Of a stretch of DNA of 44,613 bases, positions 3,416 through 44,121 are shown piece by piece. Origin of the DNA: Magnetococcales bacterium (GTDB taxonomy: Bacteria; Pseudomonadota; Magnetococcia; Magnetococcales; DC0425bin3); NCBI GenBank assembly GCA_015231175.1, contig JADGBZ010000001.1:82407-127019 (forward strand). The letters are read 5' to 3'. Numbering within the stretch: position 1 is the first letter of the stretch; each line of letters starts with the position of its first letter. Made by a program: the position numbers and the translations under genes. The notes beneath the pieces were generated by a model. That model did not search any database. It had not been told where the DNA came from and was given only the letters and a program-made list of their open reading frames with translations.

Positions 3416-3562
3416 TTCACCATTCAACAACCTTGCAAAAAAAGCCTGGACAGGAAAGCCTTTACCGGAGCTTCGTTCCGGATCCCGCCAGGACGCTGTC
3501 CAAGGCCCTGCCGGAAGGCCGGACCCTGGACCTTGATGCGTTACCAGGCGATGAATGGTGAC
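3416..3562 (+). repeat. 147-bp MITE-like repeat, diverged copy between pstS and pstC
   Basis: An older copy of the dispersed element. The left end TTCACCATTCAACAACCTTG corresponds to GTAACYATTCAGCACCCTTG in better copies, and the right end GATGAATGGTGAC corresponds to GCTGAATAGTTAC. The interior keeps AAAAAAAGCCTGGACA, GAAAGCCTTT and the CCAGGACGCTGTCC hairpin. The length of 147 bp equals the intact copy at 27530. It lies in the intergenic gap of the pst operon and is read in reverse by the operon transcript. Confidence 0.8.
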
Positions 3563-14234: not shown

Positions 14235-14381
14235 GTGACTATTCCGCACTCTTTCAAGAAAAGCCTGGATATGAAAGCCTTTGTCAGGGCTTCGCCCCGA
14301 ACCCCACCAGGACGCTGTCCTGGACCTGCCAGGGAGCCAGCCCCCTGGACCCCGATTCATGGTTGAGCTGTTCCCGGAGCA
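14235..14381 (+). repeat. 147-bp MITE-like repeat, copy with decayed right end
   Basis: The left end GTGACTATTCCGCACTC matches the terminal repeat with few changes. The interior is near-identical to the intact copy: AAGAAAAGCCTGGATATGAA, GTCAGGGCTTCGCCCCGAAC, CCAGGACGCTGTCCTGG and CCAGGGAGCCAGCCCCCTGG. The right end, after CCCCGATTCATGG, has diverged and its boundary is approximate. It lies between the converging ends of the TPR gene and the oppF-like gene. Confidence 0.85.
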
Positions 14382-22556: not shown

Positions 22557-22704
22557 GTAACCATTCAGCACCCGGCAACGAATCGGGATCCAGGGGACTG
22601 GCTCCCTGGCTTAGTCCAGGGCAGCGCCCTGGTGGGGTTCGGGGCGAAGCCCTGACAAAGGCTTTCCTGTCCTGGCTTTTCTTGAAGGGGTACTGAACAG
22701 TTAC
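22557..22704 (-). repeat. 148-bp MITE-like repeat, near-intact copy
   Basis: Bounded by GTAACCATTCAGCACCC and, at the other end, the inverse of GTAACTGTTCAGTACCCC. The interior is the element in reverse orientation, with the CCAGGGCAGCGCCCTGG hairpin and GGTTCGGGGCGAAGCCCTGA. No target-site duplication is visible, so the insertion is old or was rearranged. It fills most of the gap between the radical SAM gene and the flavoprotein gene. Confidence 0.9.
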
Positions 22705-24259: not shown

Positions 24260-24406
24260 GAGACTCCTCGCCACCCTTGCAAGAAAAGCCTGGACATGAA
24301 AGCCTTTGTCAGGGCTTCGCCCCGAACCCCACCAGGACTCTGTCTCAGGCCCTGCCAGGGAGCCAGCCCCCTGGACCCCGATGCGTGGCCGGGTGCTGAA
24401 CAGAAC
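24260..24406 (+). repeat. 147-bp MITE-like repeat, ends partly decayed
   Basis: The interior CTTGCAAGAAAAGCCTGGAC, GTCAGGGCTTCGCCCCGAAC and CCAGGGAGCCAGCCCCCTGG is close to the intact copy. The right end GGGTGCTGAACAGAAC retains most of the terminal repeat. The left end GAGACTCCTCGCCACCC matches about 11 of 17. It ends one base before the lipB stop codon, between converging genes, where its hairpins could end transcription. Confidence 0.85.
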
Positions 24407-27335: not shown

Positions 27336-27452
27336 TTGATATGAAAGCCTTTGTCAGGGCTTTGCCCCGGCCCCCTCCTGGACACTGTGCAAGGCCCTGT
27401 CAGGGTGCCAGCCCCCTGGACCCCGGTGCGTGACCGGGTGGTGAATGGATGC
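27336..27452 (+). repeat. MITE-like repeat, left-truncated copy
   Basis: Begins inside the element at TTGATATGAAAGCCTTTGTC, so about 33 bases of the left end are missing. It continues through CCAGCCCCCTGGACCCCGGT to a decayed right end GGGTGGTGAATGGATGC. It lies 77 bases upstream of the intact copy, in the same orientation. Confidence 0.8.
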
Positions 27453-27521: not shown

Positions 27522-27684
27522 CAGGCAACGTAACTATTCAGCACCCTTTCAAAAAAAGCCTGGATATGAAAGCCTTTGTCAGGGCTTCGCCCCGAACCCC
27601 ACCAGGACTCTGTCCTGGACCTGCCAGAGAGCCAGCCCCCTGGACCCCGATTCGTGGTCGGGTGCTGAATAGTTACCAGGCAAC
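27522..27684 (+). mobile_element. Intact 147-bp MITE-like element with 8-bp target duplication
   Basis: The element spans 27530-27676. The left end GTAACTATTCAGCACCC and the right end GGGTGCTGAATAGTTAC are perfect inverted repeats of 17 bases. It is immediately flanked by CAGGCAAC on both sides (27522-27529 and 27677-27684), a perfect 8-bp target duplication. It encodes no transposase. Internal hairpins include GGGCTTCGCCC and CCAGCCCCCTGG with its partner. GTAA termini plus 8-bp duplications are known for IS66-family elements, so movement by an IS66-type transposase elsewhere in the genome is the best guess. Confidence 0.93.
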
Positions 27685-31919: not shown

Positions 31920-32053
31920 TGAAAAACGATTGAAAAACTGGGATGGAGGTCCAGGAGGAAGGGCTGCGCCCTTCCTCCTGGTGGGGTTCGGGGCGAAGCC
32001 CTGACAGAATTTTTCATGTCAAAGCCCTTCTTGAAGGGGTGCTGAATAGCGAT
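31920..32053 (-). repeat. MITE-like repeat, variant with a different right half
   Basis: Read on the minus strand it begins with CTATTCAGCACCCCTTCAAG and GTCAGGGCTTCGCCCCGAAC, as in the main family. It then carries a longer hairpin GGAGGAAGGGC/GCCCTTCCTCC in place of the usual two. The far end is unlike the main family. Similar hairpins recur at about 39325 and 40910. It lies between divergent genes, and boundaries are approximate. Confidence 0.75.
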
Positions 32054-43822: not shown

Positions 43823-43875
43823 ATAACTACTCAGAACCCTTTCGGGAAAAACTTTGACATGAAAGCCTTTGTCAG
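43823..43875 (+). repeat. MITE-like repeat, left half interrupted by a second copy
   Basis: ATAACTACTCAGAACCCTTT and TGACATGAAAGCCTTTGTCA match the first third of the element. At GTCAG the sequence jumps into a second copy of the same element. Confidence 0.8.
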
Positions 43876-43988
43876 GCAACCGTTCAGTACCCCTACCAGA
43901 AAAGCCTGGACACAGGAAAGCCTTCGTCGGGGCTCCCCCCGAACCCCACCAGGGCGCTGCCCTGGACCCGCCAGGGAGCCAGCCCCCT
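43876..43988 (+). repeat. MITE-like repeat, second copy inserted in the first, right-truncated
   Basis: Begins GCAACCGTTCAGTACCCCTA, a clear left end. It runs through AGAAAAGCCTGGACA, CCCCGAACCCCACCAGGGCG and CCAGGGAGCCAGCCCCCT, then stops before the right terminus. The continuation of the first copy is not present on the far side. Confidence 0.85.
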
Positions 43989-44121
43989 TGTATCTTGGAT
44001 CCGAGGAAAAATGAACGCTGGTTTGATATGATTCGTACCACTGGGCGAAACGGAGGCAGGCTCTGCTGGGGAGCAACCTGCCAAGGGATAACTCAGTCCA
44101 AACTCGTCGAGACGGTGAGTC

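What the first reader, a model, noticed from the sequence alone, without database searches (positions are those of the whole stretch)
27522..27684. Intact 147-bp non-autonomous element with 17-bp inverted ends and a perfect 8-bp target duplication
Both ends GTAACTATTCAGCACCC are perfect inverted repeats, and CAGGCAAC abuts each side exactly. This is direct evidence of transposition of a gene-free, hairpin-rich element. GTAA ends plus 8-bp duplications are known for IS66-family elements, which suggests the mobilising transposase; no such transposase is in the window.
Basis: partly seen in the sequence, partly recalled or inferred. Interest (0 to 1): 0.72.

Follow-up and report, generated by a model that had tools for sequence, protein, structure and literature searches.

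The report
High-copy IS66-type (ISBst12-like) miniature transposon
A 147-base gene-free "hitchhiker" transposon sits intact in this magnetotactic-coccus-group genome, is one of hundreds of related copies, and carries exactly the ends of a full transposon of the IS66 family found in relatives, whose enzyme most likely moves it.

Summary
It belongs to a large family. In a 430-kb sample of the same genome a profile finds 48 copies or relics (1.3% of the DNA, extrapolating to about 430 genome-wide), nine of them in the window. Of 57 copies of 140-160 bp with both ends, 31 have a perfect 8-bp duplication and at most one has a direct repeat of any other tested length; the chance control is 4 in 11,199. 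A copy nested in an older copy gives a clean before/after site. The IS66 guess is now supported by sequence: relative G008 (same order, Magnetococcales) carries a 1722-bp element with the identical 17-bp ends, its own 8-bp duplication and a single IS66-family transposase; relative G016 carries a second, 1740-bp one. The window's own genome keeps a 5' remnant of this IS but no intact copy was found. Single-gene structure and ends match the ISBst12 group (for example ISDge4, seen to transpose). It is a new member of a known kind, a MITE. One unexpected detail: neighbouring copies often lie exactly 7 bp apart.

The parts
27522..27529 (.). left copy of 8-bp target duplication CAGGCAAC
27530..27546 (+). 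left terminal inverted repeat GTAACTATTCAGCACCC
27530..27676 (+). intact 147-bp non-autonomous element (ISBst12/IS66-type MITE)
27547..27562 (+). subterminal stretch TTTCAAAAAAAGCCTG resembling the transposase-side end of the full IS
   Evidence: p 0.001-0.03 against most of the IS 5' ends tested, not significant against two; weak
27660..27676 (-). right terminal inverted repeat
27677..27684 (.). right copy of target duplication CAGGCAAC
27336..27449 (+). older relic of the same family just upstream (profile positions 32-144)
   Evidence: nhmmer E 3e-24
22557..22704 (-). second full-length family copy (both ends, 1 and 2 mismatches; no intact target duplication)
14235..14367 (+). family copy lacking its right end
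24264..24403 (+). diverged family copy
3419..3561 (+). diverged family copy
31947..32049 (-). truncated family copy
43824..43876 (+). truncated family copy
43878..43992 (+). truncated family copy next to the previous one

Best explanation
The feature is a MITE: a short gene-free element that keeps only the two 17-bp ends recognised by an IS66-family transposase of the ISBst12 group (one DDE transposase gene). The transposase, made by a full IS elsewhere, binds the ends in trans and inserts the element, making an 8-bp staggered cut that host repair turns into an 8-bp direct repeat. Shown by sequence: the element, its ends, the 8-bp duplications, high copy number, recent amplification, and full IS elements with the same ends in relatives. 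Inferred: that this transposase moves the MITE in trans, that the MITE arose by internal deletion of such an IS or by capture of its ends, and that the source IS once resided in this genome.
For: Ends and duplication. Family with near-identical young copies: L002-L009 are identical to one another and one base different from this one. 31/57 perfect 8-bp duplications against 4/11,199 control. Nested insertion at G000:C4:69564 whose removal restores a continuous older copy with the target once. G008:C27:15467-17188: 1722 bp, identical 17-bp ends, duplication GTCTTTGC, 535-aa ORF = PF03050 E 4e-45 and NF033517 IS66 transposase E 6.5e-88. G016:C88: 1740 bp, duplication GAAGCAGA, 530-aa transposase, 82% identical. 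5' remnant of this IS in the own genome at C17:36886 onward. ISDge4, an ISBst12-group element observed to transpose: GTGACTACTCAGCA/GTAACTGCTCAGCA ends, 8-bp repeat, one 449-aa gene (PMC12898284).
Against: No intact transposase of this subgroup was found in the window's genome; the two other IS66-type transposases there are 25-29% identical and show no matching ends. The assembly is in 175 contigs, so a multi-copy IS could be missing. Mobilisation in trans was not observed. The MITE core has no demonstrable match to the IS interior beyond a weak subterminal resemblance.
Confidence: 0.9

Rival explanations
1. The element is mobilised by a transposase of another family that also makes 8-bp duplications (for example IS1, IS6, IS256 or ISL3 families).
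For: These families also make duplications of about 8 bp (general knowledge), and the own genome has no intact matching IS66.
Against: The 17-bp ends are identical to those of an IS66-family IS in the same order, and a 5' piece of that IS is in this genome. The other families' usual ends differ (recalled, not tested).
Confidence: 0.04
2. The family is a structured functional repeat (regulatory RNA, terminator or REP-like sequence) that spreads mainly because it does something for the host; transposition is secondary.
For: Strong folding on both strands; the copies in the window lie between or at the edges of long ORFs; this one sits between divergent genes (DHH-like and OsmC-like).
Against: Exact transposon anatomy with 8-bp duplications; core sequences of end-sharing elements in relatives are unrelated; no Rfam match above threshold; sparing of genes is expected from selection against disruptive insertions.
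Confidence: 0.04
3. The copies are relics multiplied by recombination or segmental duplication rather than by transposition.
For: Some copies lie close together.
Against: Flanks differ from copy to copy and each intact copy has its own 8-bp duplication.
Confidence: 0.01

Closest known systems
ISBst12 group of the IS66 insertion-sequence family (ISBst12; ISDge4 of Deinococcus geothermalis)
   Same: GTAAC..TTCAGCA-type ends, 8-bp target duplication, single DDE_Tnp_IS66 transposase in the full partner elements
   Different: The window element has no transposase gene and is 147 bp; perfect rather than imperfect ends
Bacterial MITEs such as MITEAba12 (PMC6382973) and MITEPsy1 (PMC3189936)
   Same: Short, gene-free, ends shared with a full IS, target duplications, several dispersed copies; identity to the presumed parent largely limited to the ends (MITEAba12)
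   Different: Different IS family, duplication length and sequence; copy number here is much higher (about 430 extrapolated); MITEPsy1 and MITEAba12 have been caught moving, this one has not
Classical IS66 (tnpA-tnpB-tnpC)
   Same: GTAA start, 8-bp duplication, PF03050 transposase
   Different: Classical ends start GTAAGCG and are 20-30 bp (PMC11946415); the partner elements here have one gene and 17-bp ends

Membership tests
MITE | short (under about 300 bp), no transposase gene | tested here: met
   147 bp, too short for and without a transposase gene
MITE | terminal inverted repeats | tested here: met
   perfect 17 bp
MITE | target-site duplications of fixed length | tested here: met
   8 bp in 31/57; other lengths 0-1
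MITE | multiple dispersed copies | tested here: met
   48 per 430 kb; 55 BLAST matches
MITE | ends shared with an autonomous IS | tested here: met
   identical in G008, 1-2 mismatches in G016
MITE | moved in trans by that IS | not testable with these tools
   needs a transposition assay
IS66 family, ISBst12 group (partner IS) | PF03050 / IS66 DDE transposase | tested here: met
IS66 family, ISBst12 group (partner IS) | single transposase gene, no tnpA/tnpB | tested here: met
   one 535-aa ORF fills the 1722-bp element; one 530-aa ORF in the 1740-bp element
IS66 family, ISBst12 group (partner IS) | GTAA-starting ends and 8-bp duplication | tested here: met
IS66 family, ISBst12 group (partner IS) | transposase groups with ISBst12 in a phylogeny | not tested
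   no ISfinder reference set at hand

The most novel reading that the evidence does not exclude
Resident ends act as preferred insertion targets: the transposase places new copies so that the 8-bp target takes in the terminal base of an existing end, giving neighbours exactly 7 bp apart. In addition, one strongly conserved 17-bp end is shared by full IS66-type elements and by MITEs with unrelated cores in several phyla, so that one transposase type may drive many families.
Probability: 0.3. Interest if true: 0.45.

Novelty: new member of a known kind. Interest (0 to 1): 0.33.

Why it matters
It appears to be an undescribed, very abundant MITE family: no paper in the searched library contains this end sequence or pairs Magnetococcus with MITEs, and none that surfaced in the searches describes an IS66-type MITE. 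It links a genome-wide repeat that makes up about 1.3% of sampled sequence, and that coincides with several contig ends in this assembly, to a definite transposase subgroup whose mechanism is little studied. The same end in rumen Lachnospiraceae MITE-like elements of about 164 bp shows that this kind of end has seeded such elements in distant bacteria.

Tried and rejected
Autonomous copy inside the own genome: about 1.43 Mb plus the twenty smallest contigs (C156-C175) were searched for end pairs with matching 8-bp flanks; apart from variants of up to 376 bp nothing longer was found. One search listed 6.9- and 9.2-kb pairings with one-mismatch, A-rich flanks; rejected as chance. The two ends about 1.05 kb apart on C139 turned out to be halves of different copies across a scaffold gap, with non-matching flanks. 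Own-genome IS66 transposases at C1:61061 and C27:5472: no matching ends, low identity. Base-level empty site in the sister species G002: same flanking genes, element and relic absent, but the target region is too diverged to align; the nested copy was used instead. RNA-family explanation: no Rfam match above threshold. L323, an element with near-matching ends around an IS66-like fragment: flanks do not form a duplication and the transposase is incomplete, so it was not used.

Full report
What is there. The window at 27522-27684 reads CAGGCAAC, then a 147-bp element with perfect 17-bp inverted ends GTAACTATTCAGCACCC, then CAGGCAAC again. Seven matches to the end sequence (up to 3 mismatches) occur in the window against 0.07 expected. 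The element lies between a divergent gene pair, a DHH-domain-like protein (below Pfam's cut-off) and an OsmC-like protein, about 80 bp from an older relic of the same family at 27336-27449.

It is a family. A BLAST search of the window's own genome (G000, 3.81 Mb, 175 contigs) gave 55 matches even though only 40 candidates were scored; the best copies are full length and 99% identical. L002-L009 are identical to one another and differ from the window copy at one base, which points to a recent burst. The end sequence with at most one mismatch occurs 197 times against 0 for the reversed-pattern control. A profile built from full copies found 48 copies or relics in 430 kb taken mostly from long contigs, 1.28% of the sequence, nine of them in the window. 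Scaling to the genome gives roughly 430; this is an extrapolation.

It transposes with 8-bp duplications. Of 57 paired-end copies of 140-160 bp in 1.43 Mb, 31 are flanked by a perfect 8-bp direct repeat; lengths 4-7 and 9-12 give 0 or 1; shuffled pairings give 4 in 11,199. Duplications have no clear consensus; the duplicated sequences are 45% G+C and their flanks 47%, against 57% for the sampled genome. At G000:C4:69564 one copy is nested in an older copy; removing it and one 8-bp repeat restores an older element that runs continuously along the family consensus across the junction, with the target present once. In the sister species G002 the same gene pair is present and the intergenic region lacks both the element and the relic, but the precise target is too diverged to align.

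The partner transposase. Searching 40 relatives for the end found it in 16 of them besides the own genome. In G008 (same order) two exact copies of the end flank a 1722-bp element with duplication GTCTTTGC and one 535-aa ORF. The ORF is DDE_Tnp_IS66 (E 4e-45) and NCBIfam IS66 transposase (E 6.5e-88). In G016 a 1740-bp element with ends at 1-2 mismatches, duplication GAAGCAGA and a 530-aa transposase 82% identical was found. G003, in the same family as the window's genome, has a transposase 82% identical next to such an end. The window's own genome has a 5' remnant of this IS, with its end, leader and the start of the transposase gene, at C17:36886 onward, running into a scaffold gap. No intact copy was found. 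Records with the end in the named genome collection include several Magnetococcales, among them Candidatus Magnetaquicoccus inordinatus and Magnetococcales bacterium DC0425bin3, whose record carries the same element as G003.

Which group. Single gene, about 1.7 kb, 8-bp duplication and GTAACTATTCAGCA-type ends fit the ISBst12 group. ISDge4 of Deinococcus geothermalis, classified there and seen to transpose, has ends GTGACTACTCAGCA and GTAACTGCTCAGCA, an 8-bp repeat and one 449-aa transposase (PMC12898284). Classical IS66 ends begin GTAAGCG and are 20-30 bp long (PMC11946415). No transposase phylogeny against ISfinder references was possible.

How it most likely works. A full ISBst12-type IS supplies transposase in trans; the 17-bp ends are the recognised part. 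The ends alone seem sufficient, because other Magnetococcales have MITE-like elements with the same or nearly the same ends and unrelated cores: 254-281 bp in G011, 263 bp in G025, 276 and 393 bp in G026. Rumen Lachnospiraceae and Oribacterium have MITE-like elements of about 164 bp with the same ends and 8-bp duplications. The left subterminal bases of the window MITE resemble the transposase-side end of most full ISs tested (p 0.001-0.03 in most comparisons, not significant in two), a weak hint of origin by internal deletion. Trans-mobilisation itself is inferred, not shown.

An unplanned observation. Nine pairs of outward-facing ends lie within 80 bp of each other in the sampled genome; five are separated by exactly 7 bp, and a sixth such pair has one decayed end. 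In most of these the target duplication of one copy is the 7-bp spacer plus the terminal G, or the terminal C plus the spacer, of the other copy. This means the 8-bp target took in the last base of the resident element. It suggests that resident ends attract insertion at a fixed distance. The sample is small, part of it was chosen because it contains copies of the element, and the loci from relatives, which are few, showed no such case.

Verdict. Observation confirmed and interpretation supported, refined to the ISBst12 group. It is a new, abundant member of a well-known kind of element.

Noticed in passing
G000: C4:33660/33668, C4:36866/36874, C3:4045/4053, C3:50806/50814, C61:20198/20206, C139:1931/1939: Adjacent copies of the element separated by exactly 7 bp; one copy's 8-bp target duplication usually includes the terminal base of the other.
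   Followed up: partly
L219, L224, L239, L257, L258, L284: MITE-like elements of 163-167 bp with the same or nearly the same 17-bp ends and 8-bp duplications in rumen Lachnospiraceae, Oribacterium and Clostridiales genomes.
   Followed up: partly
G011, G025, G026 loci (L134-L136, L182, L183, L191): Other Magnetococcales have MITE-like elements with the same or nearly the same ends but unrelated cores of 254-393 bp.
   Followed up: partly
G000:C17:36886-37331 (L212): 5' remnant of an ISBst12-type IS beside Sel1-repeat-like coding sequence, ending in a 10-N scaffold gap.
   Followed up: partly
G000 contigs C11, C34, C55, C78, C126, C144: These contigs end a few dozen bases inside copies of this element, so the repeat appears to break the assembly.
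   Followed up: no
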